DNA of 64,000 nt from Oscillospiraceae bacterium. GTDB lineage: Bacteria; Bacillota; Clostridia; Oscillospirales; Ruminococcaceae. This document shows, piece after piece, positions 605-60,411 of this stretch. The notes under the pieces were generated by a model. It ran no database searches and was not told the DNA's origin. It saw only the letters and a list, made by a program, of their open reading frames with translations. The stretch's first letter is position 1, and the number at the start of each line of letters is the position of its first letter. Where the stretch lies: positions 1 through 64,000 of the forward strand of contig JAFTTI010000019.1 in NCBI GenBank assembly GCA_017466865.1, read 5' to 3'. Made by a program: the position numbers and the translations under genes.

Positions 605-670
605 GCGGGTAGCACCCGCTGACGATTCGTCACGCAGTTTTTTCGGAAAATAAAAAAGTGGCTCGGAAAT
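605..670 (-). repeat. Dispersed palindromic repeat, copy R1
   Basis: Begins directly after the cotJC stop codon with GCGGGT-AGC-ACCCGC (605-619), then CGATTCGTCACG, an A/T-rich core and GGCTCGG. On the minus strand this is the family order GTTACCGAG, core, ACGAAACGA, palindrome. See the repeat-family finding. Confidence 0.75.
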
Positions 671-693
671 AAAAAATGTGATAAAAAGAAAAT

Positions 694-725
694 CCCCTCT
701 CCACTATGGAGAGGGGTTGTTTTTA
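694..725. terminator. Bidirectional terminator (CCCCTCTCC type)
   Basis: Perfect stem CCCCTCTCC (694-702) / GGAGAGGGG (708-716) followed by TTGTTTTT, with A-rich sequence on the other side. It lies between convergent cotJC and the XRE gene, so it can end both transcripts. Near-identical stems recur at about 5.09, 8.95, 13.98 and 19.06 kb. Confidence 0.85.
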
Positions 726-727
726 TC

Positions 728-1603
728 TCAGTTACTGCTAACTATGAGTTCAGAGCCTATACCTGAGATGCTGATTGTGTTTTCTCCGTTATAATCGGAT
801 ATTTCTTCGCTGACACTTCCGTCTTTCAGGCAATAAATCTTTGATTTTCTCCCCTTATTTACAAGAGTATATTTATTTATATCTTCTACATGAACGAGTG
901 TTTTTGCACCCCACTGGTTCACATCAAGCTGTGTGCAGTTGCCGTCTATTATAATGTCATAATCAGTCTTGCCTGTAAATTCAATACTGCCCTCTGTATC
1001 CTTTATATACACCGATTCTGCATCGCCGTCATATTCAAGACATTTCATCTTTAAGTTTTCAATATAAAGTTCCTTTACAGACGCGTCAATTTCACAATGC
1101 TCTGTAAAATTCACAGGAAGCATAATAATTATATCAAGCGATTCTTTAACTTCAAAACTACTGATTTCCTTTTTATTCTGACAATCTATATCAAGGCGTT
1201 TCTTTTTCTCGTCTATCTTGACTTTATACAGAGAGCTCAGATTTTCGAGCACTTCGGACTGAAGTTTTATATGAACTTTTTCATCGTCACAACCTTTAAT
1301 ACAGATTTTTCTTGCGTTTCCTATGCGTATATCAAAATGCTTTCCGCAATCAATATCATAAACAGTTTCGCTGTATGAAATCTCCTGCTGTGGCTCTGCT
1401 GTATTCATTCTCTCGAGTATGAGTTCATCTAAAGTAACCTTGAAGATTTCAGCAAGTATTATCATATTTTCAACATCGGGCAGACCTCTGTTTGTTTCCC
1501 ATTTGGTAATAGCCTGTCTTGAAACGCCTATTTTCTCCGCAAGCTGTTCCTGCGATAAACCCTGATTTGCTCTGATTTGTTTTAGTCTTTCTCCGAAATT
1601 CAT
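728..1603 (-). CDS. XRE-family transcriptional regulator with C-terminal beta-rich domain
   Basis: 291 aa. Residues 3-62 form a typical Cro/XRE helix-turn-helix (QEQLAEKIGVSRQAITKWE, GLPDVENMIILAEIF). After a linker, residues 80-290 are rich in alternating hydrophobic/polar stretches like the beta-helical DUF4097-type domains; the ligand is unknown. Last gene of a minus-strand cluster behind an ABC ATPase and FtsX-like permease, 1 nt from the permease stop. Such regulators next to MacB-like exporters commonly sense envelope or antimicrobial stress and control their own operon; that role is inference here. Confidence 0.8.
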   Translation of the reverse strand: MNFGERLKQIRANQGLSQEQLAEKIGVSRQAITKWETNRGLPDVENMIILAEIFKVTLDELILERMNTAEPQQEISYSETVYDIDCGKHFDIRIGNARKICIKGCDDEKVHIKLQSEVLENLSSLYKVKIDEKKKRLDIDCQNKKEISSFEVKESLDIIIMLPVNFTEHCEIDASVKELYIENLKMKCLEYDGDAESVYIKDTEGSIEFTGKTDYDIIIDGNCTQLDVNQWGAKTLVHVEDINKYTLVNKGRKSKIYCLKDGSVSEEISDYNGENTISISGIGSELIVSSN

Positions 1604-1604
1604 A

Positions 1605-3929
1605 TTAACCTTCCTTTATTAAAGCGTATGCCGATATTTTCTTTATGGGTTTTGTGAGTAAAATGCTGATTATCAGATTTGCCGTTATCTGCACAAAAGC
1701 AAAAATCATAAGAAAAACAAACGATACCTCCATATTGTTTTTCATAGCACCTATTGTCTCAAAAATAAACTGATTTATCTTCGGAACATAAATCATTCCA
1801 AGAGCAGATGACAACAATACCGCTATAACCGATGACGGCAGGAAACTGCCTATTGTCTGTATCATAAGTTGTCTGTTTGAATAACCGATTGCCTTATAAA
1901 TTCCGAGTTCCTGCTTTCTCTTTACAAGAAGTGTCTTTATCACAATATAAAGCACAAAAAGTACAATGAGTATCGTCAGTATGAATATTACAACCACAAT
2001 AACCGAGGTAATTCCCGAATACATTTCCTGCGTTGTTTCGGTCATCTTCTGATAATTCATTATGCTTATGATTTTATCGCTGTAAGTTTCTTCAATTTCT
2101 TTGAATATCTTCTCTGTATCGGCGGGATTATCAAGATACACATATAAAGCAGGGACAAGTTTTTCAGAACAGAGCATCTCATATCCCTCTAACGAAAATT
2201 CACAAACATTTCCCTGATAATTTACGCTCTGAACAAAACCTGTCACTTCATAAAAATGTGAAATATCGCCGTTGTGCATTTCTATTCTGTCGCCGATATC
2301 ATATTTTCCTTCAAATGCACTTCCGAGAGCGATTTCGTTCTTTTCATCGGGATTTTCACCAAGATAGCATAAATCGTTTGACACACGGCTAAAATCCTCG
2401 CAGGCAAAAACAGTAACGGGCATATCATCCGTATTTACCGTTCCGACCGCATATTTCAATACAGATTTTATTTCCGTATTGCTTTTGAGTTCATCTGAAA
2501 TGAAATCTTCTTGCTCCATATCGGGAGATATTATTATCTGTGGCATTTCTTCGGATAATGTGGATATAAAATTATCAGGCTCAATAATAACATTATAGAA
2601 CATTGTTCCTGCAAATGCAACGAGTATCGTAAGGACAAACGACACGCCGAATAATAAAACATTCTGCTTTCCGTTTGAAAAGGTTTGTTTCATAACAAGA
2701 AGAAATTTTGTTCTGCCATTTGTTTCATCAAGCGGAAAATAGTTTTTCTTGACGGATTTTCCCTCGCCGTTGCCTCTGATTGCGTTTATGGGCTGTAATT
2801 TTCTGATGCGCTTTGCAGATGTATATGTGAAGAGCGAAACTATAACCGCAAGAATTATCATAACACAGATAAGTCCCTTTATATCAAATGATAACGCAAA
2901 AGAAAAACCTGCCTGTAAAGTCAGTATTTCTGCCAAAACGGGCAGAACGGAATAAGAAAGAACCACTCCCGATAAGGAAGCGAAAACTGTAACCATAAGA
3001 TATGGAAGCACCACGCCTGCTATTATCATATTTCCTGTGTATCCGAGCGCTTTAAGAACTCCCATATTGACCATATCTTCTTCAATTGAATTGCTTATTC
3101 TGAATTTACATAAAAATACGCTTACAAGCAAAATTATCATCGCAAATGCCGAAAGAACAAGAATAATCAGATTACAGACCATTGTTCTTGTGTCCTTTGT
3201 AGAAACCCTGTCACAACTCGTAAGCATTGTGATGCCTTTTTTCTCTGTCAGGTCGCTGATTTCATTCTGAAGAGTATTGATATCTCCGTTTGTAATAACA
3301 GAATATTCCATAACTGTCTGTTCTTTATATTCTTCGGCAAATTTTTCATAGACTTTTTCAGGAAGATATGCACCCATAAGTCCTTTTCCGTAGTTGCCGT
3401 ATTGCATTTCTTCTGCAACGCCCGAAACTTTAAAACTATGCTTTGTATCACCGATTTCATAAACTATCTCGTCATCAATACCGAATTCGCCGAAAGCTGA
3501 TACATACAAAGGAAGATAAATTGAGTTATCTGTCATTTCAGCCTTTTCTTCCTTTATATCAAGTTTATTCATATTACGGAATTCGTCCTTGTTATAGAAC
3601 AAGGTGTTCATTGAAAAGTCGGTATCTCTGAAATCCTTGACTACCGCTTCTGCAAATACCGCTTCCCTGCATTCTATATCAACCACATCATCAAGCGCTC
3701 TGATGTCTTCTTTCAGTGTATCGTCATTCTGTATCTTTAAAATGGTGAAATTAAAAGAAGCGGTATTCAGTCTGTTGAATTTATCATCATATGCCTTATC
3801 GACCTGAAAAAGCAATACAAAAGCGAGATTTAACATAATTGCTGTAATCAGGACAACTATGCCGAAAGATATATAAGAGCCTTTATCCTTTTTAAGATTA
3901 TATATCAGCTGGGATTTTATCTTTCTCAT
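1605..3929 (-). CDS. ABC transporter permease, FtsX/MacB-like (two FtsX domains)
   Basis: About 774 aa integral membrane protein: N-terminal helix (17-45), a large extracytoplasmic domain, three helices near 255-370, another helix near 425-450, a second extracytoplasmic domain and three C-terminal helices (about 655-770). This duplicated FtsX layout is typical of exporters for peptides or lipids acting with a MacB-type ATPase. I chose ATG at 3929, preceded by GGGGTGG, over an in-frame GTG at 3938 that would overlap the ATPase stop. Cotranscribed with the ATPase (2-nt gap) and the XRE gene. Substrate unknown. Confidence 0.85.
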   Translation of the reverse strand: MRKIKSQLIYNLKKDKGSYISFGIVVLITAIMLNLAFVLLFQVDKAYDDKFNRLNTASFNFTILKIQNDDTLKEDIRALDDVVDIECREAVFAEAVVKDFRDTDFSMNTLFYNKDEFRNMNKLDIKEEKAEMTDNSIYLPLYVSAFGEFGIDDEIVYEIGDTKHSFKVSGVAEEMQYGNYGKGLMGAYLPEKVYEKFAEEYKEQTVMEYSVITNGDINTLQNEISDLTEKKGITMLTSCDRVSTKDTRTMVCNLIILVLSAFAMIILLVSVFLCKFRISNSIEEDMVNMGVLKALGYTGNMIIAGVVLPYLMVTVFASLSGVVLSYSVLPVLAEILTLQAGFSFALSFDIKGLICVMIILAVIVSLFTYTSAKRIRKLQPINAIRGNGEGKSVKKNYFPLDETNGRTKFLLVMKQTFSNGKQNVLLFGVSFVLTILVAFAGTMFYNVIIEPDNFISTLSEEMPQIIISPDMEQEDFISDELKSNTEIKSVLKYAVGTVNTDDMPVTVFACEDFSRVSNDLCYLGENPDEKNEIALGSAFEGKYDIGDRIEMHNGDISHFYEVTGFVQSVNYQGNVCEFSLEGYEMLCSEKLVPALYVYLDNPADTEKIFKEIEETYSDKIISIMNYQKMTETTQEMYSGITSVIVVVIFILTILIVLFVLYIVIKTLLVKRKQELGIYKAIGYSNRQLMIQTIGSFLPSSVIAVLLSSALGMIYVPKINQFIFETIGAMKNNMEVSFVFLMIFAFVQITANLIISILLTKPIKKISAYALIKEG

Positions 3930-3931
3930 AA

Positions 3932-4690: not shown

Positions 4691-4910
4691 AATGTAACCT
4701 CCGGATGTGATTGATTTTATGATTTCAGTATAGTTACATTTAAAGATAGCAACCACCAACATCCGTTTACATATGAAAAAAAGGATGCTACTTATCGTAG
4801 CATCCCTCTGAAACCGCCTGATTTCGTATAAAATATGGCAGATTTATTTTTGGATTTCATTCCAAAAACTATTGATTTTTATATTTTTTTTTGGATATAA
4901 TATTATCAAG

Positions 4911-4999
4911 TTCGTAAATTCGGCGAAGCTCTTCGTCTTGCGACGGATAATCTCGACTCAAAGAATTTCTATGCGTTTAATCCGAGTTTTGATAAGTAG
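4911..4999 (+). pseudogene. Duplicate of the cotJC 3' end
   Basis: Encodes in frame FGEALRLATDNLDSK followed by NFYAFNPSFDK and a TAG stop, the same last 26 residues as the cotJC-like gene, with a single synonymous difference seen. There is no start or upstream cotJC sequence. The copy continues through the palindromic repeat and terminator (to about 5118), so about 200 bp is duplicated on both sides of the XRE/ABC module. Confidence 0.85.
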
Positions 5000-5066
5000 G
5001 CGGGGAGCCCCCGCGGGCGATTCGTCACGAAGTTTTTTCGGGAAATAAAAAAGTGGCTCGGAAATA
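5000..5066 (-). repeat. Dispersed palindromic repeat, copy R2
   Basis: GCGGGG-AGC-CCCCGC (5000-5014) immediately follows the stop of the duplicated cotJC tail, then ATTCGTCACGAAG, a T/A core and GGCTCGG. It differs from R1 by compensating changes in the stem. Confidence 0.75.
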
Positions 5067-5087
5067 AAAATGTGATAAAAGAAAATG

Positions 5088-5120
5088 CCCCTCTCCACAT
5101 CGGAGAGGGGTTATTTTTTT
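5088..5120. terminator. Terminator (CCCCTCTCC type)
   Basis: CCCCTCTCC (5088-5096) / GGAGAGGGG (5102-5110) followed by TTATTTTTTT. It is the duplicated copy of the terminator at 694-725 and insulates the downstream response-regulator gene. Confidence 0.85.
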
Positions 5121-5195
5121 ACAACAGAAACAAAACTTTAACATTTATATATTATAATAGTTCTGGATAGACAGATTTTTTTACGGAGGTAAACT

Positions 5196-8190: not shown

Positions 8191-8191
8191 T

Positions 8192-8233
8192 AAATCAGGG
8201 ACATTGATTTTTTAAAACCAATGTCCCTGATTT
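8192..8233. terminator. Bidirectional terminator
   Basis: Long inverted repeat AAATCAGGGACATTG / CCAATGTCCCTGATTT around a short T/A loop, with A-runs and T-runs at the ends, between convergent genes. Confidence 0.8.
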
Positions 8234-12679: not shown

Positions 12680-12747
12680 AAGGGTACCGAGCCACAAACT
12701 CAGGTACCCTTGATTGTTTATTACGAATTGCCAAAAGGGACTCCTTT
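12680..12747 (+). repeat. Dispersed palindromic repeat, copy R10 (GGTACC variant)
   Basis: GGTACCGAG, core containing an internal hairpin AAGGGTACC / GGTACCCTT (12680-12711), TTACGAATTGCC and a terminal AAAGG-GACT-CCTTT palindrome. The AAGGGTACC hairpin may also act as a transcript end for the KdpE-like gene. R12 at 26.67 kb has the same form. Confidence 0.6.
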
Positions 12748-12776
12748 AGTGTGTGTACGATACAAAAATAAGTGAA

Positions 12777-12844
12777 GTTACCGAGTAGTAAACTTTTTTT
12801 ACTTAATCTGTACGATACGAATTGCCAAAAGGGGCTCCCTTTTC
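12777..12844 (+). repeat. Dispersed palindromic repeat, copy R11
   Basis: GTTACCGAG (12778-12786), T-rich core, ATACGAATTGCC, then AAAGGG-GCT-CCCTTT (12828-12842), a fully paired stem with the GCT centre shared by other copies but a different stem sequence. Confidence 0.65.
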
Positions 12845-12909: not shown

Positions 12910-13833
12910 ATGGCTATCTTAATTCAGATACTTCTTTTGGCATTAGGTTTTACAATGCTTATAAAAGGTGCCGATTGGTTCGTTGACGGTGCATCGGGGA
13001 TTGCTACAAAATTCGGTATCCCACAACTTGTTATTGGTCTTACTATCGTTGCAATGGGAACAAGCGCTCCCGAAGCGGCGGTAAGTATTTCCGCGGCAAT
13101 AGGCGGAAGTGCTGACATCACCATAGGAAACATTGTCGGAAGCAATATTTTAAACATCTTCATAATACTCGGTATTTCGGCGGTTATAACAACTCTTGCG
13201 GTTGCTTCATCAACGATAAAATACGAAACTCCGTTTATGATTTTAATTACAATTCTTCTTCTCGTTTTAGGTCTTGACAAAACTATTGGTCTTATCGACG
13301 GAATTATTCTTATAGCGGCATTCATCACTTATCTCACATACTTATTCATAATGGCGAAGAAAAACAAGGAAGAACAGCCAGAGGCGAGGCCGATGGCTAT
13401 ATGGAAAGCTATTCTTTTAACGATAATAGGTCTTGCGCTTATAATTCTCGGCAGTAATGTTACTGTTGACGCGGCAACAGCAATCGCACAGGCTTTTGGT
13501 GTAAGTGAAAGATTTATAGGTCTTACAATAGTAGCCCTCGGAACATCACTCCCCGAACTTTTCACATCTGTTTCTGCCGCAAGAAAACACAATGCCGACA
13601 TAGCAATCGGAAACATCGTAGGAAGCAACATCTTCAACATCCTCTTTGTTGTCGGACTTTCTTCGGTTATAATCCCTGTTCCTTTTGCAAGCAACTTTAT
13701 CTTCGATACAATCGTTGCGATAGTAGCGGCGGCGCTTCTTCTCGTATGTTGTCTTAAAACAAAATCCCTCAAACGATGGGCAGGTATTTTAATGCTTATC
13801 TGCTATGTTGCATACTTCATTATGATTCTCTAG
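12910..13833 (+). CDS. Ca2+/cation antiporter (CaCA family, YrbG-like)
   Basis: 307 aa, about ten membrane helices in two homologous halves. Each half carries an alpha-repeat: GTSAPEAAVSISAA...GNIVGSNILNI in the first and GTSLPELFTSVSAA...GNIVGSNIFNI in the second, with the acidic residues expected to bind the cation. Probably exchanges Na+ or H+ for Ca2+ across the cytoplasmic membrane. Start ATG 12910 follows AAAAGGAG. Monocistronic; its stop codon abuts repeat R3. Confidence 0.9.
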   Translation: MAILIQILLLALGFTMLIKGADWFVDGASGIATKFGIPQLVIGLTIVAMGTSAPEAAVSISAAIGGSADITIGNIVGSNILNIFIILGISAVITTLAVASSTIKYETPFMILITILLLVLGLDKTIGLIDGIILIAAFITYLTYLFIMAKKNKEEQPEARPMAIWKAILLTIIGLALIILGSNVTVDAATAIAQAFGVSERFIGLTIVALGTSLPELFTSVSAARKHNADIAIGNIVGSNIFNILFVVGLSSVIIPVPFASNFIFDTIVAIVAAALLLVCCLKTKSLKRWAGILMLICYVAYFIMIL

Positions 13834-13899
13834 GCGGGGAGCCCCCGCGGGCGTATCGTTTCGAAGTTTTTTCAGAAAATAAAAAACGGCTCGGTAACG
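13834..13899 (-). repeat. Dispersed palindromic repeat, copy R3
   Basis: GCGGGG-AGC-CCCCGC (13834-13848) starts at the base after the exchanger TAG stop, then ATCGTTTCGAAG, core and GGCTCGGTAAC. Same placement as R1 and R2. Confidence 0.75.
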
Positions 13900-26666: not shown

Positions 26667-26730
26667 AGGGTACCGAGCGATAAACTAAGGTACCCTTGAT
26701 TCTTTATTACGATTTACCCAAAGAGAGCGG
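26667..26730 (+). repeat. Dispersed palindromic repeat, copy R12 (GGTACC variant)
   Basis: GGTACCGAGCGATAAACTAAGGTACC, then TTATTACGATTTACCC. AAGGGTACC / GGTACCCTT form a hairpin between the convergent fliB-like and initiator-like genes, as in R10; it overlaps the 3' end of the initiator-like gene. Confidence 0.6.
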
Positions 26731-29847: not shown

Positions 29848-29921
29848 TATTAGGTTTCGCTGTCGGCTGTAAATTTATTTTCTTGATAAACTGAATACGA
29901 TTTGTCCCGTGCGGTCACGCA
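29848..29921 (+). repeat. Dispersed palindromic repeat, copy R4, fused to a structured-element fragment
   Basis: 29854-29870 GGTTTCGCTGTCGGCTGT matches the 5' part of the structured element at 58838-58855. Next comes AATTTATTTTCTTGATAAAC, ATACGATTTGTCCC and GTGCG-GTCA-CGCAC (29909-29922). All of it lies inside the symporter reading frame. Confidence 0.7.
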
Positions 29922-31127
29922 CAACGCAATGAGGTTCGGAAAAGCCATCAGCGCATTGAAAATATCCGCTATGTAAAATACATTTTCAAGGCTTATTGTA
30001 GCGCCAATGAGTATAAAAGCTATATAAATATACTTATAGTATATTTTAGAACCCTCCCCGAAAAGAAAAACAAACGCCGTTTCACCGATAACCTCCCAAC
30101 CGATGATGGTCGCTACCGCAAAAAGATAGATGCAGACCGCAATAAAACCGCCCGAACTTTTCCCTAAAACCGAAGAAAATGCCGATATTACGAGTCCTAC
30201 GGGTTCAGCACCGATATATTCTCCGCTCGTTGTGAGAATTGCGAAAGCGGTCAGACTGCAACAGATAACGGTATCTATGAAAACCTCGGCTATACCCATA
30301 GCTCCCTGACGGAAAGGGTTGTTGTCGCCAGAGGCTGAATGGACTATCCCCATGCTTCCCATTCCTGCCTCGTTTGAAAAAACTCCCCTCGAAAGACCTG
30401 TCACAACCGCCGTTTTTACCGATGTTCCGACTATCCCTCCCGCTACCTCGCAAAGTCCGAAAGCCGATGAGAAAATGTCTATAAAAACATAGGGAATTGC
30501 CCTGAAATTCTTTACAATTACTAATATTGACATAAAAATATACAGAGAGGATAAAATCGGAACTAACTTTTCAGCAACACTTCCGACAGATTTCATTCCC
30601 CCGATGATGACCAGAAAGCAGACTATCGCCGTTAAGGATGCGATAATAAGGGGGTTTAAAGAGAATGTCCCTGATATTGCCGAAACTCCCGAGGCAGATT
30701 GCGCCATATTTCCTATCCCGAAGGATGAGAGAACGCAGAAAACCGCAAAAATATACGACAAGGGTTTAAGCTTTACACTTTTCGACAGAATTTTCATCGC
30801 ATTTCCTCTGCGTGTCGCGATAAAATTTTCAGCGAAGGCGAGTCCCATTCCGAAAAACGAAGAAACCCACATCCAGAACAAAGAACCTGCTCCGCCGACG
30901 GAGAGAGCCGCCGCGACGCCCGTTATGTTGCCCGTTCCCATTGTTGCGGCGAGGGTTGTAAAGGTTGTTCTTCTGAGATTTTTGTCTGTTATAGACTCTT
31001 TTGTGAATTTTAAAATCGTTTTCGGGCGGAGCTGAAAAAATCCGAAACGAAAAGAAAGGAAAACACCTGATAAAATAACGGGAAAAAGCATAATGTTCCA
31101 GACAGAAGATGACACCGATTTCAGCAT
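29850..31127 (-). CDS. Sodium:alanine symporter family protein (AGCS)
   Basis: 425 aa with about ten helices. Family signatures: MGTGNITGVAAALSVGGAGS near 70, FAENFIATRRG, and LSRGVFSNEAGMGSMGIVHS near 245. Imports alanine or glycine with Na+. ATG 31127 follows AAAGGAGAGG and is preferred to 31163. The C-terminus after FPNLIALC is unusual: the last 22 codons and the stop are supplied by repeat R4 and a fragment of the structured element. Divergent from the tRNA operon. Confidence 0.88.
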   Translation of the reverse strand: MLKSVSSSVWNIMLFPVILSGVFLSFRFGFFQLRPKTILKFTKESITDKNLRRTTFTTLAATMGTGNITGVAAALSVGGAGSLFWMWVSSFFGMGLAFAENFIATRRGNAMKILSKSVKLKPLSYIFAVFCVLSSFGIGNMAQSASGVSAISGTFSLNPLIIASLTAIVCFLVIIGGMKSVGSVAEKLVPILSSLYIFMSILVIVKNFRAIPYVFIDIFSSAFGLCEVAGGIVGTSVKTAVVTGLSRGVFSNEAGMGSMGIVHSASGDNNPFRQGAMGIAEVFIDTVICCSLTAFAILTTSGEYIGAEPVGLVISAFSSVLGKSSGGFIAVCIYLFAVATIIGWEVIGETAFVFLFGEGSKIYYKYIYIAFILIGATISLENVFYIADIFNALMAFPNLIALCVTARDKSYSVYQENKFTADSET

Positions 31128-31332: not shown

Positions 31333-31408
31333 GGCGGTATAGCTCAGTGGCTAGAGCAACCGGTTCATACCCGGTAGGTCGTAAGTTCAAATCTCACTGC
31401 CGCTACCA
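31333..31408 (+). tRNA. tRNA-Met (CAT)
   Basis: 76-nt cloverleaf with encoded CCA. Acceptor GGCGGTA/TGCCGCT, D-arm GCTC...GAGC, anticodon stem ACCGG/CCGGT with loop TTCATAC, T-loop TTCAAAT. The G1-U72 pair and one A-C mismatch in the T stem are minor oddities. CAT could also be Ile-lysidine type; elongator Met is most likely from the acceptor. Confidence 0.9.
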
Positions 31409-31410
31409 AT

Positions 31411-31431
31411 GATACCGCAATAAGCGGTATC
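31411..31431 (+). other. Hairpin between tRNA genes
   Basis: GATACCGC-AATAA-GCGGTATC without a T run; probably a processing hairpin between the two tRNAs in the precursor. Confidence 0.6.
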
Positions 31432-31436
31432 ATTTC

Positions 31437-31511
31437 GGCCCGTTGGTCAAGTGGTCAAGACGTCACCCTTTCACGGTGAAATCATGGGTTCGACTCCCGT
31501 ACGGGTCACCA
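31437..31511 (+). tRNA. tRNA-Glu (TTC)
   Basis: 75 nt with encoded CCA. Acceptor GGCCCGT/ACGGGTC, anticodon stem TCACC/GGTGA with loop CTTTCAC giving anticodon TTC, T arm GGGTTCGACTCCC. The minus-strand recombinase reading frame runs into this gene. Confidence 0.92.
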
Positions 31512-32995
31512 ATCATTAACAAAGACGAACACTCAAGATTAGCTTGGGTGTTCTCTTTTTTTATACCCTCGTTTACATCGTCGAGGCTCAGAGCAACTTC
31601 ACCCTCCTTGAAATTGAGAAAAACAACAAGCCTGTCCTCATAAACAAAAACGCTGTTGATGAAAATATCAATTAGACGCTGTTTCTGTTCTTCATCCTTG
31701 AAATCTGTCTTTGCAAACTGCATTATCCAGAATTCAATCTGTTCCCTTGAAAGTATCGGGCGGCAGATTTGTTCCTGTGCAAGTGCAGCTTCAATCGTAG
31801 CCTGCTTTTCTTCAAGCTCCGTCAGAGTTTGCTTTGTAGACTTTGTTATAATGCCTGCCTTGATCGCATTCATAACATTGTCTATTTCTTTTTCTACGGC
31901 TTTCAACTGCTTTTTAAGAATCGGAACCTGTGAGCTTTCTGCACTCTGCATGGAATAACATCTCTCGCTGATTTTCTTGACAAGATTTTTGTTTTTAAGA
32001 AGCTGCATAATAGAGTCGAAAACCCTATCTTCAATCAAAGCTTTCTGTACGATTTTCTTTTTGCAGGTCTTTTTCTTGGATTTCATACATTGATAATAGC
32101 GGTAATTATCCTTCGTTTTGCTCGTTCCGCTGATGCCTGACATTGAAGTTCCGCACTCACCGCAGAATATTTTTCCTGTGAGATAATATCGCTCCTCCAC
32201 CTTTTTGAAGCTCGCCGCCTTATGCTTGTTTGAGGATAATCTTTTCTGACATTTTTCAAATATCTCTTCGGAAATAATCGGAGGAATTGCCTCTGTATTC
32301 ATCGTATCCCTGAAAGTATATTCTCCTATATAGCGACGATTTTTCAAAATCCAGTTGATAAAATGGTAGGTCATCTTCTTGCCTCGATTGGTAACGCTCT
32401 TACTCGTCAGGTCATCTATAATACTGCGAATTGGCTCACCCTCGGCGTATCTTCTGAATATCTCTGCGACTATCGGAGCTTCCGTTTCGTGCTTCTGAAA
32501 ACGCTTGTCGTCATCAATCACATAACCGTAGGTGATATGACCGCCGTTGAATTTTCCTTTGATTGCATTTTCGGTCATTCCTCGGCTTGTTTTCAGTTCA
32601 AGGTCTTTTACATAATATTCAGAAAATCCCTCAAATATTGACTCCATCAGCTTTCCCTCAGGAGAATCATCAATTGGCTCAGTTGCAGAAATAACCGATA
32701 CTCCGTTTTTGTTCAGTTTGGATTTATAAATTACGCTGTCGTATTTATCACGGGAAAATCTATCAATCTTCCACACGATTACAACATCAAATTCACCTTT
32801 TGCACTATCGTTTATCATTCGCTGAAATTCGGGACGGTTATCTGCACGCTTGCCTGAAATTGCTCTGTCGGCATAGCTTTTTATTACCGTATATCCCTTG
32901 CGTTCCGCAAATGCCATACACTCACGAAGCTGTCCCTCAATACTTTCCTCACGCTGATTGTCCGAGGAGTATCTCGCATAAATTACTGCTTTCAT
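31463..32995 (-). CDS. Large serine recombinase
   Basis: 510 aa site-specific recombinase/integrase. Resolvase catalytic domain 1-150 (AVIYARYSSDNQ with nucleophile Ser near 10; GKRADNRPEFQRM; VWKIDRFSRDKYDS), Recombinase domain about 155-265 (GHITYGYVIDDD, NRGKKMT), zinc ribbon about 280-335 (KIFCGECGTSMSG...YYQCMKSKKKTCKKK), coiled coil about 350-420. ATG 32995 follows AAAGGCGG. The last about 25 residues are encoded across the tRNA terminator and tRNA-Glu and look like accidental read-through, so the functional end may be near GIKK. Element ends not located with certainty. Confidence 0.9.
   Translation of the reverse strand: MKAVIYARYSSDNQREESIEGQLRECMAFAERKGYTVIKSYADRAISGKRADNRPEFQRMINDSAKGEFDVVIVWKIDRFSRDKYDSVIYKSKLNKNGVSVISATEPIDDSPEGKLMESIFEGFSEYYVKDLELKTSRGMTENAIKGKFNGGHITYGYVIDDDKRFQKHETEAPIVAEIFRRYAEGEPIRSIIDDLTSKSVTNRGKKMTYHFINWILKNRRYIGEYTFRDTMNTEAIPPIISEEIFEKCQKRLSSNKHKAASFKKVEERYYLTGKIFCGECGTSMSGISGTSKTKDNYRYYQCMKSKKKTCKKKIVQKALIEDRVFDSIMQLLKNKNLVKKISERCYSMQSAESSQVPILKKQLKAVEKEIDNVMNAIKAGIITKSTKQTLTELEEKQATIEAALAQEQICRPILSREQIEFWIMQFAKTDFKDEEQKQRLIDIFINSVFVYEDRLVVFLNFKEGEVALSLDDVNEGIKKENTQANLECSSLLMIGDPYGSRTHDFTVKG
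31527..31562 (+). terminator. Terminator of the tRNA operon
   Basis: GAACACTCAAG / CTTGGGTGTTC stem then TCTTTTTTT. It overlaps the 3' end of the recombinase frame, which is therefore under two constraints. Confidence 0.8.
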
Positions 32996-33392: not shown

Positions 33393-33459
33393 CGTTACCG
33401 AGCGTTATACCCTCGATTTTTCGTATGTTGCATACGAAATGCCAAAGGCGGCTCGCCTT
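33393..33459 (+). repeat. Dispersed palindromic repeat, copy R9
   Basis: GTTACCGAG (33394-33402), core with CGTATG-TTG-CATACG, AAATGCC, and the AAGGCG-GCT-CGCCTT palindrome (33445-33459). It lies inside the leader of the recombinase region, so the family entered the element too, or the leader is host DNA. Confidence 0.6.
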
Positions 33460-50689: not shown

Positions 50690-50756
50690 GGTTATCGAGC
50701 CATAAACTGATTTTCATAGCAAATTACGAAACGAATTGTCCCGTGCGGTCACGCAC
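50690..50756 (+). repeat. Dispersed palindromic repeat, copy R5
   Basis: GGTTATCGAGCC, core, TACGAAACGAATTGTCCC, palindrome GTGCG-GTCA-CGCAC (50743-50756). It abuts the parS-like site at 50757. One of the most complete copies. Confidence 0.75.
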
Positions 50757-50772
50757 TGTTCCACGTGGAACA
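50757..50772. promoter_or_regulatory. parS-like site 1
   Basis: TGTTCCACGTGGAACA, a perfect 16-bp palindrome, one base from the B. subtilis parS consensus TGTTCCACGTGAAACA. Expected ParB (Spo0J) binding site for origin segregation. Confidence 0.9.
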
Positions 50773-52162: not shown

Positions 52163-52231
52163 CGTTACCGAGCGGTAGAGTTGTTTTCAAAAATAAAGTC
52201 GGAAACGATTCGCCGGCGGTGGCTCACCGCC
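52163..52231 (+). repeat. Dispersed palindromic repeat, copy R6
   Basis: CGTTACCGAG (52163-52172), core, GGAAACGATTCGCC, then GGCGGTG-GCT-CACCGCC (52215-52231). The mnmG stop codon (52226-52224) is read from the centre of this palindrome. Confidence 0.75.
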
Positions 52232-54092: not shown

Positions 54093-54093
54093 A

Positions 54094-54293
54094 AAAATTC
54101 TCTTTTCTTAAAGATAATTCCACGGAGCCCGTGGAGGCGTATTCCGAAAGCGAAAAAGATTGTTTCCATAAAACGAAAAGACATCGTTTACCGAAAACGA
54201 AAAAGATTGTGCTTTATGCTAGGCAAACGAGTGAAGGAATATGCGGATATTCCGAACGAGTTTAACGACGCAGAAAGTGCAAGATTTTTCGTT
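54094..54293. other. Intergenic region mnmG-mnmE with short repeats
   Basis: Contains CCACG-GAGCC-CGTGG and two copies of CGAAAAAGATTGT (about 54150 and 54198). CCATAAAACGAAAAGACA (54166-54183) recurs exactly at 51392-51409 near the rsmG 3' end. No gene seen. Confidence 0.5.
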
Positions 54294-55658
54294 TTATTTT
54301 CCTACGCAGAAGTGGGAGAATACCTCATCTACTACTGCCTCTGTTACCCTCTCGCCAGAGAGTTCTAAAACGGCTGAAAGCGCTTCGTCAAGAACAACTG
54401 TCAGCGCGTCAAAAGTTTCGCCTGATTCCACAAGAGAAACCGCTTCCGAAATTGATAAAAGTGCCTTATCTACGCAGTTTTTCTGTCTTTCGTTCGCTAT
54501 CATTCCCGATGAATAATCGATAGTTCCGAAAGAGAAAATTTCGCTGATTTTCTTTTCGAGATTATCAATTCCCTCGCCCGTTTTCGCAGAGATAGAAACT
54601 GATTTTCCCAAAACATTTTCTATTTTTTCTATGTCGATTTCGTTCCCCTTTTCGCATTTGTTTATAATGGGAATTACTTTCTTTCCTTCAAGTTTTTCAA
54701 TGATTTTTTCGTCCTCGTCGGAGAGTTTTTCAGAAGAATCAAAAACCGCTAAAACAAGGTCTGCCTCCGAGAGTTTTTTAATAGAGCGTTCTACGCCTAT
54801 ACTCTCGACAACATCGCCCGTTTCACGAATACCAGCGGTATCTGAAAGTTTGAGTAAAATATCGCCGACCATAGCGGTTTCTTCGACAATATCTCTTGTT
54901 GTTCCCTCGATGTCTGTAACAATACTTCTGTCGAAACCTAAAAATCTGTTCATTAAAGTCGACTTTCCTACATTCGCCCTACCGACTATCGCTGTGTCAA
55001 TTCCGTTTCTTAAAACCCTGCCGTTGTCATAGGTTTTTGAAAGCGACAAAAGTTCTTCGTGGATATTACAAAGTGCTGAAGAAAGTTCTTCGGGAGTAAG
55101 TTCCATAATATCTTCTTCGGGATAATCGACCCACGCAGAAAGTTCGCCCAAAATTTTAAGTATCTTATCTTTTACATAAGAAATTCTTTTATATAAAGCA
55201 CCCTCTTTTGCCGAAACTGCGGCTTTTCTCGCCTGTTCGCCACCTGCTGAGATAATGTCTATGACGCTTTCGGCTTCTGTGAGAGAGAGTTTTCCGTTTA
55301 AAAATGCACGCTTTGTAAATTCACCCGCTGCCGCTATTTCGCAACCTGCTTTGATAGTTGCAGAAAGAACTTTTTTTGCAACAAAAACACCGCCGTGACA
55401 AGATATTTCGATAACATCCTCGCCTGTATAACTTTTAGGCGCACGAAATACTGTGAGCACTCCTTCGTCGATTTCTTCATCACCCATAAAAATCTTTCCG
55501 AAAGCGCAGGTATAGCCTTTCATTTCAGAAATTTTCTTATCGGAAGACACGGGGCGAAAGACCTTTTCAGCAACAGAAAAAGCCTTATCTCCGCTTATTC
55601 TTATAACGGCTATTCCGCCCTCTGAAAGTGGCGTTGAAATCGCTGCAACAGTTGACAT
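54294..55658 (-). CDS. mnmE: tRNA modification GTPase MnmE (TrmE)
   Basis: 454 aa. N-terminal folate-binding domain 1-118 (EGGIAVIRISGDKA, EISCHGG), helical domain, G domain about 215-375 with G1 GRANVGKST, G3 DTAG, G4 NKCE, and the C-terminal CxGK (FCVGK). Works with MnmG in a heterotetramer. ATG 55658 after GAGGGG. 200 nt separate it from mnmG. Confidence 0.95.
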   Translation of the reverse strand: MSTVAAISTPLSEGGIAVIRISGDKAFSVAEKVFRPVSSDKKISEMKGYTCAFGKIFMGDEEIDEGVLTVFRAPKSYTGEDVIEISCHGGVFVAKKVLSATIKAGCEIAAAGEFTKRAFLNGKLSLTEAESVIDIISAGGEQARKAAVSAKEGALYKRISYVKDKILKILGELSAWVDYPEEDIMELTPEELSSALCNIHEELLSLSKTYDNGRVLRNGIDTAIVGRANVGKSTLMNRFLGFDRSIVTDIEGTTRDIVEETAMVGDILLKLSDTAGIRETGDVVESIGVERSIKKLSEADLVLAVFDSSEKLSDEDEKIIEKLEGKKVIPIINKCEKGNEIDIEKIENVLGKSVSISAKTGEGIDNLEKKISEIFSFGTIDYSSGMIANERQKNCVDKALLSISEAVSLVESGETFDALTVVLDEALSAVLELSGERVTEAVVDEVFSHFCVGK

Positions 55659-55715
55659 ATTTTTTATCCCCTCTTCGAAAAACGGCTTGACAACTTTGCT
55701 GCCAAGCCGATATTC

Positions 55716-56522: not shown

Positions 56523-56544
56523 AATTTTTTTAACGCTCCTTACT

Positions 56545-57753
56545 TTAGTTATCGTGATTTATTTCTATGCCTAAATCTTCGGCAGAAACTTCATCTTTAT
56601 ATTTTTCTTCCATTCTCTTTCGCGCGTCGGCAATGATTTTACTTTCAAGGTCTTTCTGCATCGACTTTGAAATCTTTATGTTGCCTTCTTCATCGCGTGG
56701 AAGTTCTTTCTTTATTTCTTCATCAAGGTTTCTTGTAGGATTGTTTAACTGTTTCTGTTCTTCAAGAAGGGCGAGTTGTTTTTCATACATTCTTTCCATA
56801 TAGCCCTTGCCCTTTTTCTTCTTCTTTCTTTCAGCGTCTTTCTTAACGAGTTCTGCTACCTTTTCGGGTGTGTAAACTTTACTTAAAACAACCTGCTGGA
56901 AAAATCCGAAGATTGACTGGCAGATCCAGTAGTAACCAACGGCCATAGGGAAGTTTCTTGCGATAAAGATTGAGATGATAGGCATAATGTAAAGCGAAAG
57001 TGTCATCGCGTTCATTGATTTTGCCATTGCGTTATCGGGATTTGACTTCTTCTGCTGTGCCTGTGAATAGATCATAGTGAGAAGCTGTGAAAGACCCGCG
57101 AGAATAGGGATTAAAAGTGTAGGCCATGTCCAAGTCGGGTTAACGCCGAGGTCGAAAATTCCTAAGAGATTCATATCAAAGTTGCTTACCGCTTCGCAGA
57201 ATTTTGGCATTGAAGCGAAAGCCGCAGGGTTATCGTTATAAGCCTGCATGATAATAAGCTGTGACTGATAGTTCTTTGAAAGATTTTCAACATTCTTTAC
57301 AACCGTTGCCCAGGCTTCACCGTTTGCCTGTGCTTCAAGGATAACATTCTGTGCTATGAGTGTTGCCTCTGCTATCATATCTTTTGAGAAGTGCATGATA
57401 TGTGTGAGAGGTCTGTAAACAACATCGATGATACCAAAAAGAACGGGGAACTGAATAAGCATAGGAAGACAACTTGACATAGGGTTTATGCCTTCTTCAG
57501 CATAGAGTTTCATCTGTTCTTCCTGAAGCTTCTGCTGGTTGTTTGCGTATTTTTTCTGTAAAGCCTGAAGTTTCGGCTGAAATGCCGACATCATGGCTGT
57601 ATTTTTCTGCTGTTTAACACTTAAAGGAAACAAAAGAATCTTTGTTACAAGTGTGAATAAAAGAATTGCAATACCGTAATTCTTAACGAGATAATATATA
57701 CCCCACATTATAAATCCCAAGGGGTAACCAAAAATTTCATAAATTAACTGCAT
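56545..57753 (-). CDS. yidC: Membrane protein insertase YidC/Oxa1
   Basis: 402 aa. Core insertase with helices near 18-45 ([23 protein letters not shown]), 90-115, 215-235, 265-300 and charged cytosolic C-terminal tail of about 90 residues ([17 protein letters not shown]). Inserts membrane proteins alone or with SecYEG. It overlaps the yidD end by 10 nt. A long central extracytoplasmic insertion (120-205) is present. Confidence 0.93.
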
Positions 57754-58013
57754 CTGTCTGCTCCTGATTTCTTATTTTTCTTTTCGGGGACATAGTCTAT
57801 TCCCCCTATACTCCATGGGTGACAACGGAGTATTCTTTTAACTGCTAAAAAGCCACCGTAAAATATCCCGAAACGCCTTATTGCCGTTAAGGCATACTGT
57901 GAACAGGTAGGATAGAATTTACAACAAGGCGGCTTTAAAGGAGAAATAAATTTCTGATAGAAAACTATCGGCAAAGAACAGATATATCTTATTGTTTCAA
58001 TAAGTTTATCCAT
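57744..58013 (-). CDS. yidD: Membrane protein insertion efficiency factor YidD
   Basis: 89 aa. YidD hallmark [27 protein letters not shown] then [26 protein letters not shown] 58013 follows GGGAGGGG; the frame upstream belongs to rnpA overlap. Overlaps rnpA by 8 nt and yidC by 10 nt. Confidence 0.95.
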
Positions 58014-58359
58014 TTTTCTTAACCCCTCCCGATTCGATAAAAGGAATGGCTTTCTTTTCAAAAAAAGTCGCTATCTGATATGATTTAACCTCCGCTGCGG
58101 CTTGTCTTGCAACAAAGATATAATCGTATCCTTTCGGGAATTTCGCCCTTAAAGAATCATAAGCTGCTCTTATAACTCTTCTCGCTCTTGAACGCTTGAC
58201 AGAATTCCCGACCTTTTTTGTTGTTGTTATACCTACTCTGTTTTCATTTGTTCCGTTTTTTCTGAAATACACAACAACGGTTTTTCCCGCTATGTATTTC
58301 CCTCTTTTATAAAGTCTTAAAAAAACTTTATTGTCTTTGATGATTTCTTTTTTCTGCAT
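58006..58359 (-). CDS. rnpA: Ribonuclease P protein component
   Basis: 117 aa basic protein that helps RNase P RNA cut tRNA precursors. Seen: [21 protein letters not shown] and the signature [19 protein letters not shown] (usual form has RNR, here RSR), [13 protein letters not shown] 58359 gives a normal family length; the frame reaches 58410. Between rpmH and yidD. Confidence 0.93.
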
Positions 58360-58501
58360 AATTTTAAAGAAAAAAGACCGCAATTTTCCCCACCAAGCAT
58401 AAATCCCCAAAGTGTTATAAATGGCACAACGAAGTTTTAAAACCCCGCCACGAGGATGCCTGTGTGAAATGCGGTCAATGGTCGAATTTTTATCTTACTT
58501 A

Positions 58502-58636
58502 TTAGTAGCTGAGCATCTTTCTGCCCTTTGCTCTTCTTCTTGCAAGAACTTTTCTTCCGTTTGCTGTTGACATACGGCTTCTGAATCCGTGAACCTTCTT
58601 TCTGTGAAGCTTCTTAGGCTGATATGTTCTTTTCAT
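58502..58636 (-). CDS. rpmH: 50S ribosomal protein L34
   Basis: 44 aa: [20 protein letters not shown], then [20 protein letters not shown] and MLSY. All family residues are present. ATG 58636 is 8 nt after AGGAGGG. First gene of the rpmH-rnpA-yidD-yidC-jag cluster. Confidence 0.98.
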
Positions 58637-58712
58637 CTTTTTCCCTCCTTGCGAAAAACCGATTATCCGAAAAAATATATAAAATCGGTTAAAGATAATC
58701 TGACAAGTTTAT

Positions 58713-58741
58713 ATTATAGACTATATAAACGCTTTCGTCAA
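58713..58741 (-). promoter_or_regulatory. Sigma-A promoter of the rpmH operon
   Basis: TTGACG (58741-58736), 17-nt spacer, TATAAT (58718-58713). Leader of about 75 nt contains CCGATTATCCGAAAA...AATCGG inverted repeat. Confidence 0.85.
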
Positions 58742-58807
58742 GCATTTTTTCGCGATTTTTTTCTTTTCGTTAATTTTGAGTTGTCTTATTTGTGCGGTTT
58801 TGTGCAA

Positions 58808-58816
58808 AGTGGATAA
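58808..58816. promoter_or_regulatory. DnaA-box-like sequence
   Basis: AGTGGATAA (reverse TTATCCACT), 8 of 9 with the consensus TTATCCACA. A single box; cannot define an origin alone. Confidence 0.4.
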
Positions 58817-58837
58817 TGAAAAAGGCATATTTTAAGG

Positions 58838-58902
58838 GTTTCGCTGTCGGCTGTTTCACAGCCTTTAACAGCGACCTTCTTTTTATTTCGCAAAAAAGAA
58901 GG
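58838..58902 (-). repeat. Structured element, copy S1 (nested hairpins)
   Basis: On the minus strand: hairpin GCCTTCTTTTTTG / AAAAAGAAGG, then outer stem TCGCTGT (58874-58868) / ACAGCGA (58847-58841) enclosing inner hairpin GGCTGT-GAA-ACAGCC, and AAACC. Same plan as the end of the 60.5-kb element (S2), with different stem sequences. Confidence 0.6.
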
Positions 58903-59034
58903 CAAAATGCGCCTCTTGCAGAGGGCTGCGCCTGCTCACGCGCAGGCGTTCGGATTATTCCATTCGCAACAGCAAATAGTCCGTTGCCGATATTACGAAT
59001 GAAAAATAACTTTTCATTGCACGCACCAACTTTA
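58903..59034. other. Palindrome-rich spacer near the origin
   Basis: Contains CGCCTGC-TCA-CGCGCAGGCG-like and TTCGTAATATCGGCAACGG-type inverted stretches; no gene with a ribosome site seen. A frame on either strand of about 100 codons covers it but looks like repeat DNA. Confidence 0.5.
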
Positions 59035-59066
59035 TTTATATGCTCATTGGTTTGTGCGTTACCGAG
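59035..59066 (+). repeat. 32-bp direct repeat, left copy
   Basis: TTTATATGCTCATTGGTTTG then TGCGTTACCGAG; an identical 32 bp is at 60323-60354. The two enclose tRNA-Arg and asnA. It extends the head of repeat copies R7 and R8. Confidence 0.85.
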
Positions 59067-59120
59067 TTTTTTTATTATCCTAACAAACTGCATAACAATA
59101 TGTCCTCCGCGGTCACGCGG
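59056..59120 (+). repeat. Dispersed palindromic repeat, copy R7
   Basis: GCGTTACCGAG, T-rich core, GCATAACAATATGTCC, CCGCG-GTCA-CGCGG (59107-59120). Palindrome faces the 3' end of tRNA-Arg, 23 nt away. Confidence 0.65.
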
Positions 59121-59143
59121 TGCCTGCGGGGGCTCTCCGCCGG

Positions 59144-59220
59144 TGGCACGCCCGACCGGATTCGAACCGGTGGCACATAGCGTCGGAGGCTATTGCTCTA
59201 TCCAGCTGAGCTACGGGCGC
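59144..59220 (-). tRNA. tRNA-Arg (CCG)
   Basis: 77 nt including encoded CCA. Acceptor GCGCCCG/CGGGCGT, D arm GCTC...GAGC, anticodon stem ATAGC/GCTAT with loop CTCCGAC giving CCG, T arm ACCGG-TTCGAAT-CCGGT. Lies downstream of asnA on the same strand. Confidence 0.92.
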
Positions 59221-59255
59221 ATAAATCCGCTGTATAAAAATACAGCGGAATTTTT

Positions 59256-60266
59256 TTATAAAAGCTGTACTCCCTTTTCGTCACATTCTTTAGACATCTT
59301 TTCAGGCCAGACAGAAACCTGAACTTCGCCTATGTGCGCTTTTTCTAAAAGAAGCATACAAAGTCTTGACTGACCTATTCCACCGCCGATTGTGAGCGGA
59401 AGAATGTTATCCTTAATCATCCTGTGATAGTCAAACTGAAGTCTGTCCATAGCGTTATATTTTTCGAGTTGTGAGATAAGTGAAACATCATCAACACGAA
59501 TACCCATTGATGAGATTTCAAGAGAGTCCTCTAAAACCTCGTTCCAGAAAAGAAGGTCACCGTTTAAAGCCCAGTCGTCATAGTCGGGTGCTCTGCCGTC
59601 GTGCTTCGTGCCGTCTGAAAGAGTGTCCCCTATCTTCATAATGAAAACAGTTTTATACTTTTCTGTTATAAGGCGTTCTCTTTCTTTTCCCGTTTTATCG
59701 GGATACATAGCGCGGAGTTCTTCTGTTGTTATAAAGTAAGGTGTTTCGCAGATTTTCTTTGTAAGACATGGGTAGCGAAGATTTACCTTTCTCTTTGTAT
59801 AGGCGATTGCTTTAACAATAGACTTTACTGTTTCTTTTAAGAACTCTTCATTTCTTTCTTCTTTAGAGATTACCTTTTCCCAGTCCCACTGGTCAACGAA
59901 AACCGAATGGATATTGTCGGCATCGTCATCACGGCGGATAGCGTTCATATCGGTGTAAATTCCCTCGCCGACATTATAGCCGTATTTATAAAGCGCCATT
60001 CTCTTCCACTTTGCGAGTGACTGAACAACCTCTGCTTCGCCGTCGATTTCCTTGAAAGAAAAGTCGACTTTTCTCTCTGTTCCGTTAAGGTCATCGTTTA
60101 TACCGCTTCCCTTTCTTACAATAAGGGGAGCTGTTACTCTGTCGAGAGTTAAAGCAAATGAAAGATTCTGCTGAAAAAGATCCTTTATATATTTTATTGC
60201 GTGCTGGGTTTCTCTTAAAGTCAGAGCGGATTTATACCCATCGGGGATAATCATTTGTCTTGACAT
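59256..60266 (-). CDS. asnA: Aspartate--ammonia ligase (asparagine synthetase A)
   Basis: 336 aa; makes asparagine from aspartate, ammonia and ATP. Family words: ALTLRETQHAIKYIKDLFQ, DRVTAPL, ALYKYGYNVGEGIYTDMNAIRRDDD, SVFVDQWDWEK, LTIGGGIGQSRLCMLLL. ATG 60266 follows AAAGGTGG. Downstream of asnS on the same strand, so the asnS T-box may also govern it if transcription passes the structured region between. Confidence 0.95.
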   Translation of the reverse strand: MSRQMIIPDGYKSALTLRETQHAIKYIKDLFQQNLSFALTLDRVTAPLIVRKGSGINDDLNGTERKVDFSFKEIDGEAEVVQSLAKWKRMALYKYGYNVGEGIYTDMNAIRRDDDADNIHSVFVDQWDWEKVISKEERNEEFLKETVKSIVKAIAYTKRKVNLRYPCLTKKICETPYFITTEELRAMYPDKTGKERERLITEKYKTVFIMKIGDTLSDGTKHDGRAPDYDDWALNGDLLFWNEVLEDSLEISSMGIRVDDVSLISQLEKYNAMDRLQFDYHRMIKDNILPLTIGGGIGQSRLCMLLLEKAHIGEVQVSVWPEKMSKECDEKGVQLL

Positions 60267-60322
60267 TTTTTATTACACCACCTTTATTCAATGTTTGGTT
60301 TGGTTATTATGTTTCGTCCTTT

Positions 60323-60354
60323 TTTATATGCTCATTGGTTTGTGCGTTACCGAG
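60323..60354 (+). repeat. 32-bp direct repeat, right copy
   Basis: Identical to 59035-59066; continues into repeat R8. Confidence 0.85.
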
Positions 60355-60411
60355 CCATAAATTTATTTTCATATCAAACTACGAAACGATATGCCCGCGG
60401 GTGCTACCCGC
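60346..60411 (+). repeat. Dispersed palindromic repeat, copy R8
   Basis: GTTACCGAGCC, TATTTTCATATCAAACTACG, AAACGATATGCCC, GCGGGT-GCT-ACCCGC (60397-60411). Same stem as R1. Confidence 0.75.

What the first reader, a model, noticed from the sequence alone, without database searches (positions are those of the whole stretch)
605..60411. Dispersed about 65-bp palindromic repeat family with compensating stem changes, usually at gene 3' ends
Copies at 605, 5000, 13834, 13924 (partial), 29870, 33393, 50690, 52163, 59056 and 60346, plus GGTACC variants at 12680, 12777 and 26667, share the order GTTACCGAG, A/T core, ACGAAACGA(T)TTGCC, palindrome. The palindrome keeps its centre (GCT or GTCA) while the stem changes on both sides: GCGGGT/ACCCGC, GCGGGG/CCCCGC, GGCGGTG/CACCGCC, AAGGCG/CGCCTT, AAAGGG/CCCTTT, GTGCG/CGCAC, CCGCG/CGCGG. 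Covariation of this kind argues that pairing itself is selected, in DNA or RNA. R1, R2, R3, R4 and R6 put the palindrome at the stop codon of a gene, always with the same polarity relative to that gene. It may be a non-autonomous transposable element targeting terminators, or a 3'-UTR RNA.
Basis: seen in the sequence. Interest (0 to 1): 0.8.

Follow-up and report, generated by a model that had tools for sequence, protein, structure and literature searches.

The report
Palindromic repeats abutting gene ends
A family of tiny hairpin-forming repeats, scattered through the genomes of uncultured gut bacteria and often placed exactly where a gene stops, looks like a mobile palindrome of the REP kind with a second, co-varying pairing between its loop and its foot.

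Summary
The repeat is real. All 13 window copies align; a model from 7 of them finds 29 further copies in the MAG at E<0.001. The 19-nt hairpin has a 5-bp stem (S1) and a second pairing (S2) of loop GYC with foot GRC. Both co-vary: among 150 listed pattern matches in 14 genomes of the order, the free S2 pair was complementary in 149. The hairpin edge touches a same-strand stop codon in 23 of 80 testable elements (3.7 expected), but polarity is not fixed: the attached terminator's far end touches an opposite-strand gene end in 8 of 35, and co-directional gaps hold 20 sense and 19 antisense elements. Close species differ in presence, number and hairpin class at the same gene ends. No Y1 transposase was found in 5 of 6 genus genomes, three of them incomplete. 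Best reading: REP-like, non-autonomous mobile palindrome landing at gene ends, enzyme unknown; a new variant of a known kind.

The parts
604..669 (+). unit 605, hairpin GCGGGTAGCACCCGCTGAC directly after TAG of a Mn-catalase gene; body; plain terminator further downstream
   Evidence: Pfam PF05067; strand given is the hairpin-first strand
4999..5065 (+). unit 5000, inside a 204-bp duplicate (window 523-724 and 4918-5118); hairpin differs from that of 605 at 4 of 19 nt, including a T-A to G-C pair change
13832..13899 (+). unit 13834, class A hairpin directly after TAG of a Na/Ca exchanger gene; terminator CTCGGTAACG...CGTTATCGGG TTTTTT
   Evidence: in close species G001 the same site carries a class B hairpin after TAA
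13923..13971 (+). second tandem unit, class B hairpin GTGCGTGACCGCACGGGAC, truncated body, plain terminator
12682..12747 (-). GGTACC subfamily unit with its own internal terminator; absent from G001, which has a plain terminator here
12777..12841 (-). unit with hairpin AAAGGGAGCCCCTTTTGGC; absent from G001
26668..26727 (-). GGTACC subfamily, degenerate hairpin, overlaps the 3' end of an ORF
29859..29924 (-). class B hairpin unit whose terminator side differs from the other copies
33393..33458 (-). class A hairpin AAGGCGAGCCGCCTTTGGC unit
50690..50757 (-). class B hairpin unit; G001 keeps the hairpin with a shortened body, G005 has an extra unit
52163..52231 (-). class A unit whose stem supplies the TGA stop of mnmG; absent from G001, where mnmG is 5 codons longer and overlaps rsmG
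   Evidence: Pfam GIDA, GidB
59057..59119 (-). class B hairpin unit behind hairpin module 59121-59140 and tRNA-Arg
59121..59140 (-). hairpin-only module GCGGAGAGCCCCCGCAGGCA between tRNA-Arg (59144-59220) and the class B unit; not in G005; ACCG on both sides
60345..60412 (-). class A unit, also in G005 at the same place, not in G001
54120..54138 (+). hairpin-only module CCACGGAGCCCGTGGAGGC without the body

Best explanation
A REP-like, non-autonomous mobile palindrome. The core unit is a 19-20 nt hairpin (stem S1, 5 bp, variable; loop GA-GYC or T-GRY; foot GRC-A or RAC-A) that in this genus travels mostly with a ~50 nt body. Its hairpin edge often lies exactly at a functional gene end (stop codon, tRNA CCA) or in a terminator, and a terminator usually follows the body, so that the unit becomes 3' UTR. 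Turnover is quick: units come and go between close species, tandem arrays form, and hairpins of one class stand where another species has the other class. Shown: anatomy, S1 and S2 co-variation, stop-codon contact, presence/absence and hairpin switching. Inferred: that an enzyme acting in trans recognises the folded single strand; that S2 (loop with foot) is part of that recognition, as guides beside the hairpin foot are for IS200/IS605 and RAYT enzymes; and that switching means insertion beside, and loss of, older hairpins. S1 and S2 can hardly form in full together in one short molecule (1-2 nt linker across 5 bp; general knowledge, not modelled), so S2 is an alternative state or acts between copies.
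For: 36 copies in own genome at E<=0.001, and 57, 5, 41, 4 and 37 in the five other genus genomes. Structure-only scan: 41 hits in G000 stretches (39 after removing two counted twice; a few lie inside genes) and 46 in G003, against 2 in shuffles of each. S2 test on 75 of 84 body-anchored copies: class A 0.871 paired versus 0.715+-0.018, class B 0.935 versus 0.733+-0.041, 0 of 2000 shuffles each. Order-wide pattern with free letters: S2 149 of 150, S1 145 and 143 of 150 listed matches; backward-read control 0 in all 21 genomes. Hairpin edge at a stop codon 23 of 80 versus 3.7 expected. Of 42 alignable site comparisons 15 lack the unit by profile and 10 differ in number; of the 15, eight (seven loci) keep no hairpin of the family, seven keep one. 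Examples: SpoVAE-like gene, mnmG, 12680/12777. Hairpin-only module gained or lost at tRNA-Arg. No orientation preference in co-directional gaps, 20 to 19, as expected of a mobile element rather than a gene's own UTR.
Against: No enzyme found that goes with it: PF01797 in 1 of 6 genus genomes and 5 of 10 hairpin-bearing genomes; large serine recombinases (PF07508) are in 9 of 10 genomes searched but not in G005, which has many copies; one such gene lies between copies 29870 and 33393. No clear target-site duplication; the only candidate is ACCG at one site. 15 of 42 site comparisons show the same number of units, so many copies are inherited. Gene calls come from a simple codon-based caller written here; movement itself was not seen.
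Confidence: 0.7

Rival explanations
1. A host 3'-UTR RNA: the hairpin at the stop codon, with S1 and S2 as alternative folds, and the terminator act on mRNA end formation, stability or translation termination of the upstream gene.
For: Exact contact of the hairpin edge with stop codons; terminators on the body side of 47 of 76 copies against 19 of 76 on the other side; same contact in another family of the order (G084: 6 of 16 class A hairpins outside genes).
Against: Orientation is not fixed (20 sense, 19 antisense in co-directional gaps) and the terminator end touches opposite-strand gene ends too (8 of 35). Some of the same genes lack the element in species 92-97% alike. Copies far from stop codons, behind a tRNA, and hairpin-only modules. 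Pair-breaking changes at orthologous copies.
Confidence: 0.13
2. No dedicated enzyme: tandem slippage and template switching at hairpins and terminators copy and convert these modules, and selection tolerates them only between genes.
For: Arrays of about 95 bp and a duplicated gene tail at argS; the first hairpin of G001 behind the exchanger gene equals the second one there; mosaic of other repeats; no transposase found.
Against: The same module lies at many unlinked loci, and its edge at the first stem base is sharp at the sites aligned, which local slippage does not explain.
Confidence: 0.13
3. Ordinary bidirectional terminators that look alike by chance or composition.
For: Convergent gaps are enriched (21 of 40 elements in G000 versus 50 of 358 gaps of at least 60 bp).
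Against: Alike bodies confined to the genus at R1 sensitivity except 2 of 19 family members; shuffles give 2 hits where 41-46 are seen.
Confidence: 0.02

Closest known systems
GTAG REP elements with RAYT (TnpA_REP) enzymes
   Same: 20-40 nt palindromes in high copy, between genes, in convergent or unidirectional gaps, close to gene 3' ends; [quoted passage not shown] stem and loop variants coexist
   Different: GTAG stands before S1 in 3 of the 43 motif hits of G000 (copy 605, not among them, has it too); stem about 5-7 bp; loop-foot co-variation; no RAYT found
CGTC REP elements
   Same: Said to lack a dedicated transposase; tag often changed to TGTC or CCTC (PMC3733652, abstract and section 6); here the strand complementary to the hairpin-first strand carries T-GYC 1-2 nt from the foot
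   Different: CGTC stems are 8-9 bp with A-T pairs first, tails mostly CCA; here mostly G-C pairs, 5-7 bp
IS200/IS605 guide and cleavage-site pairing
   Same: Short hairpins recognised as single strands; cleavage site chosen by base interactions with a guide just 5' of the foot (PMC8266576 and PMC6006769, passages)
   Different: Here the partner of the foot lies in the hairpin loop; the enzyme is missing from most genus genomes
bcr1 repeats of the Bacillus cereus group
   Same: Dispersed, structured, mobile-looking repeats in Firmicutes (recalled; one search gave a search listing only)
   Different: About 155 bp and unrelated (recalled, not compared here)

Membership tests
GTAG REP / RAYT system | GTAG or GTGG 0-2 nt 5' of the hairpin | tested here: not met
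   3 of 43 motif hits in G000 have GTAG before S1; definition from PMC6006769 passages
GTAG REP / RAYT system | RAYT (Y1, PF01797) gene in the genome | tested here: not met
   1 of 6 genus genomes (own, G002 and G004 are only 74-79% complete); 5 of 10 hairpin-bearing genomes
REP elements in the broad sense | short palindrome, many copies, between genes, near gene 3' ends | tested here: met
REP elements in the broad sense | mobility, judged by presence/absence at orthologous sites | tested here: met
   movement itself was not observed
CGTC REP | tag CGTC or TGTC/CCTC at one foot | tested here: inconclusive
   complement of the foot with its A is TGTC in GAC copies, TGCC in GGC copies
CGTC REP | stem of 8-9 bp with A-T pairs first | tested here: not met
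   pair types are mostly G-C
IS200/IS605 non-autonomous element (MITE) | hairpins at both ends and an IS200/IS605 TnpA | tested here: not met
   single-hairpin units are common; PF01797 missing in 5 of 6
Known Rfam family | score above the gathering threshold | tested here: not met
   none at the repeats in the window or at the hairpins of 20 loci, 19 of them from other genomes
Integron attC site | long folded site with cassette array and integrase | not tested
   considered from recall only

The most novel reading that the evidence does not exclude
The loop GYC is a built-in guide and the foot GRC-A the cleavage site of an unknown single-strand recombinase of this bacterial order; the loop-foot code lets hairpins of many different stems be moved by one enzyme and placed exactly at gene ends.
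Probability: 0.14. Interest if true: 0.82.

Novelty: new variant of a known kind. Interest (0 to 1): 0.58.

Why it matters
GTAG and CGTC REPs are described as residing predominantly in Proteobacteria, and how those without a RAYT gene spread is open (PMC3733652 abstract). Here is a family in an order of mostly uncultured gut bacteria in which pairing is shown by two co-varying helices, close species give filled and empty sites, and the hairpin edge meets the gene end to the base. That makes two questions testable: what recognises a hairpin of almost any sequence, and why it lands at the last base of a gene. It also means that 3' UTRs of the same gene can differ in kind between close species.

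Tried and rejected
Y1 transposase as mobiliser: own genome, genus and ten hairpin-bearing genomes searched; not linked. Large serine recombinase: in 9 of 10 genomes, none in G005. Autonomous partner flanked by copies: 46 candidate ORFs, of which those in intervals with at most two genes were printed; one is a serine recombinase (window 31463-32995) that has no like among the 46, the others that I read look like cellular genes; not all were put to Pfam. Gene-cassette idea: abutted genes are mostly chromosomal housekeeping or sporulation genes (ArgS, MnmG, Mn catalase, bactofilin, SpoVAC/SpoVAEB, Na/Ca exchanger, M23 peptidase, a permease, a solute-binding protein, DUF6512, an epimerase; one without a Pfam match); Spo0A, germination protease, P-II and DnaA have a unit 11-22 nt behind the stop. 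Third stem S3 in the body: 5.88 versus 5.80 mean length with halves swapped between copies, so not supported. Fixed polarity: my first measure, taken from the end of the profile match, showed no opposite-strand gene end nearer than 25 nt (0 of 93); measured from the end of the attached terminator 8 of 35 lie within -8 to +1 and 10 of 35 within 10 nt. The claim is withdrawn; for that reason I moved the host-UTR rival from 0.17 to 0.13, the mobile reading from 0.68 to 0.70, the boldest reading from 0.15 to 0.14 and interest from 0.60 to 0.58. Rfam: nothing above gathering at the repeats; one search gave only matches below gathering. Phages: 0 matches with a strict pattern, 3 with a loose one, not read. 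Paper searches for Oscillospiraceae with palindromic repeat, and Oscillospirales with hairpin and stop codon, gave 0; term searches in PMC3733652 found no Firmicutes, Clostridi or Ruminococc, and in PMC12306157 no Oscillospir or Ruminococc, though the latter lists other Bacillota, among them Bacillus subtilis and Acetivibrio clariflavus, as having REP candidates. Only open-licence papers are covered.

Rows dropped: G003 was left out of the site comparison; 132 of 174 comparisons could not be made because flanks were not fetched or not found; a locus can be counted from both sides. In one search, 9 of 84 copies with fewer than 4 of 5 stem pairs in register were left out of the S2 test (some are hairpins one letter out of register or of a third class). 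One search covers the 150 matches listed, not further ones.

Full report
What is there. A covariance model from seven of them finds 47 matches at E<=1 in the 1.8 Mb MAG (75% complete), 36 at E<=0.001; only 150 of 954 candidates were scored, so this is a lower bound. The model matches in all six genomes of the genus held (36, 57, 5, 41, 4 and 37), in 2 of 19 other genomes of the family and in 0 of 16 others of the order.

Anatomy. Terminators of other sequence, and the GGTACC type, replace it in some copies. A terminator-like site lies within 150 nt on the body side in 47 of 76 copies, beyond the hairpin in 19 of 76, and behind 490 of 1659 gene ends in general. Units form head-to-tail arrays of about 95 bp.

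Two pairings. The 19-nt hairpin reads S1 (5 nt), GA, GYC, S1', one nt, GRC in class A; S1, T, GRY, S1', two nt, RAC in class B. A structure-only scan gives 29 A and 12 B hits in 556,566 bp of G000 (two counted twice through overlapping stretches; 39) and 44 and 2 in 394,000 bp of G003; shuffled sequence gives 1.0+1.0 and 1.5+0.5. A few hits lie inside genes and are probably chance. To avoid circularity I found copies by the body alone (84, in G000, G001 and G005) and classed them by S1 alone (44 A, 31 B, 9 neither): S2 is paired in 0.871 of class A cells against 0.715 when partners are shuffled, and in 0.935 against 0.733 in class B, with 0 of 2000 shuffles reaching either. Copies share descent, so shuffles overstate the case; the wider test is better. 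A pattern with free letters at paired positions was run on 21 genomes (ones that had matched a first pattern, plus genus members): of 150 listed matches in 14 genomes, S2 was C-G in 77, T-A in 72 and mismatched in 1; the two free S1 pairs were complementary in 145 and 143. Collapsing identical hairpins within a genome leaves 70 of 71 for S2 against 52 when shuffled within genomes. The pattern read backwards matched nothing in the 21. The first, narrower pattern (S2 fixed as GCC/GGC) matched 18 of 394 genomes of the order in 13 of 169 genera. A third stem in the body was not supported.

Placement. Of 80 elements with a same-strand gene upstream and both neighbours known, 23 begin within -8 to +1 nt of its stop codon; uniform placement in the same gaps gives 3.7, at most 11 in 5000 draws. 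This is not a one-sided rule. Measured from the end of the attached terminator, opposite-strand gene ends lie within -8 to +1 nt in 8 of 35 cases; a first measure from the end of the profile match had hidden this (0 of 93 nearer than 25 nt). Over the four genomes 60 elements lie in convergent, 39 in co-directional (20 sense, 19 antisense) and 14 in divergent gaps, the rest at contig ends (sums); in G000 it is 21 of 40 convergent against 50 of 358 gaps. So units often fill the space between a stop codon and a terminator or a second stop codon. Stop codons may be finished by the stem (TA|G; TGA inside S1 of mnmG). In G084, of another family, 6 of 16 class A hairpins outside genes touch a stop codon, with a different body. 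Behind the tRNA-Arg gene (59144-59220) a hairpin follows CCA directly in G001 (class A) and in G005 (class B); G000 has a class A hairpin 3 nt behind CCA and then a class B one.

Turnover. G001 and G005 are 92-97% alike to the window over the long matches. Behind the exchanger gene G000 has TAG and a class A hairpin, G001 TAA and a class B hairpin: 10 of 19 hairpin letters differ, against 5 of 132 in the gene and 8 of 38 in the body. The units at 12680-12842 are missing from G001, which has a plain terminator. Behind the SpoVAE-like gene G001 has TAA and a plain terminator, G000 the element in between. In G001 mnmG lacks the element, is five codons longer and overlaps the start of rsmG; in G000 the hairpin ends it. 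In G005 a catalase gene tail stands, at a rearranged place, without the element. Of 42 site comparisons, counted from both sides, 15 have the same number of units, 15 none by profile, 10 another number, 2 a long indel; of the 15, seven keep a hairpin of the family and eight (seven loci) do not. Copies 605 and 5000 are in a 204-bp duplication, yet their hairpins differ at 4 of 19 places against 1 of 82 to the left and 10 of 100 to the right, one difference being a T-A to G-C pair. Neighbouring C25 units differ as GCC/GGC and GTC/GAC. Against strict selection on pairing at each locus, two orthologous copies carry pair-breaking changes (sites 9 and 23).

Interpretation. The sum fits a REP-like mobile palindrome that lands at gene ends and becomes 3' UTR. 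It works like a REP; it is not a GTAG REP (tag and RAYT both missing), and only partly resembles CGTC REPs. In IS200/IS605 and RAYT systems a guide beside the hairpin foot chooses the cleavage site by base pairing (passages of PMC8266576 and PMC6006769); a guide in the loop that pairs with the foot would be a new arrangement, and is the boldest reading. E. coli REPs within 15 nt of a stop codon are reported to stall ribosomes (PMC12306157, passage citing earlier work), so an effect on the neighbouring gene is possible. The host is an unnamed genus of Oscillospiraceae of ruminant guts, judged from the titles of the records that match G001 and G005; the order name Oscillospirales is recalled, not from a call.

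Noticed in passing
window 58871-59120: A separate repeat of about 250 bp, ending at the hairpin of unit 59056, with many partial copies in G001 and G005, 81-89% alike among the ten compared.
   Followed up: partly
window 54195-54301 and 60547-60649: Further short repeats (about 100 bp) matched many times in G001 and G005.
   Followed up: no
window 31333-32995: tRNA-Met and tRNA-Glu next to a large serine recombinase gene (PF00239, PF07508), which lies between repeat copies 29870 and 33393; perhaps the end of an integrated element.
   Followed up: partly
window 62070-62319: T-box leader on the minus strand ahead of the gene 60660-62030.
   Followed up: no
window 62658-64000 (to 64022 on the contig): dnaA gene at the right edge, so the window may lie near the replication origin.
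   Followed up: no
L257 1240-1298: Match to Rfam SpF59 sRNA above the gathering score (51.2 bits) in the own genome, beside but not on a repeat.
   Followed up: no
G000:C14 10944-11109 (L035): Tandem unit pair behind argS in which the gene tail is duplicated together with the unit.
   Followed up: partly
G001, three body-anchored copies: A third loop class GTGCG-AA-GGG-CGCAC-A-GCCC, with GGG/CCC as possible loop-foot pairing.
   Followed up: no
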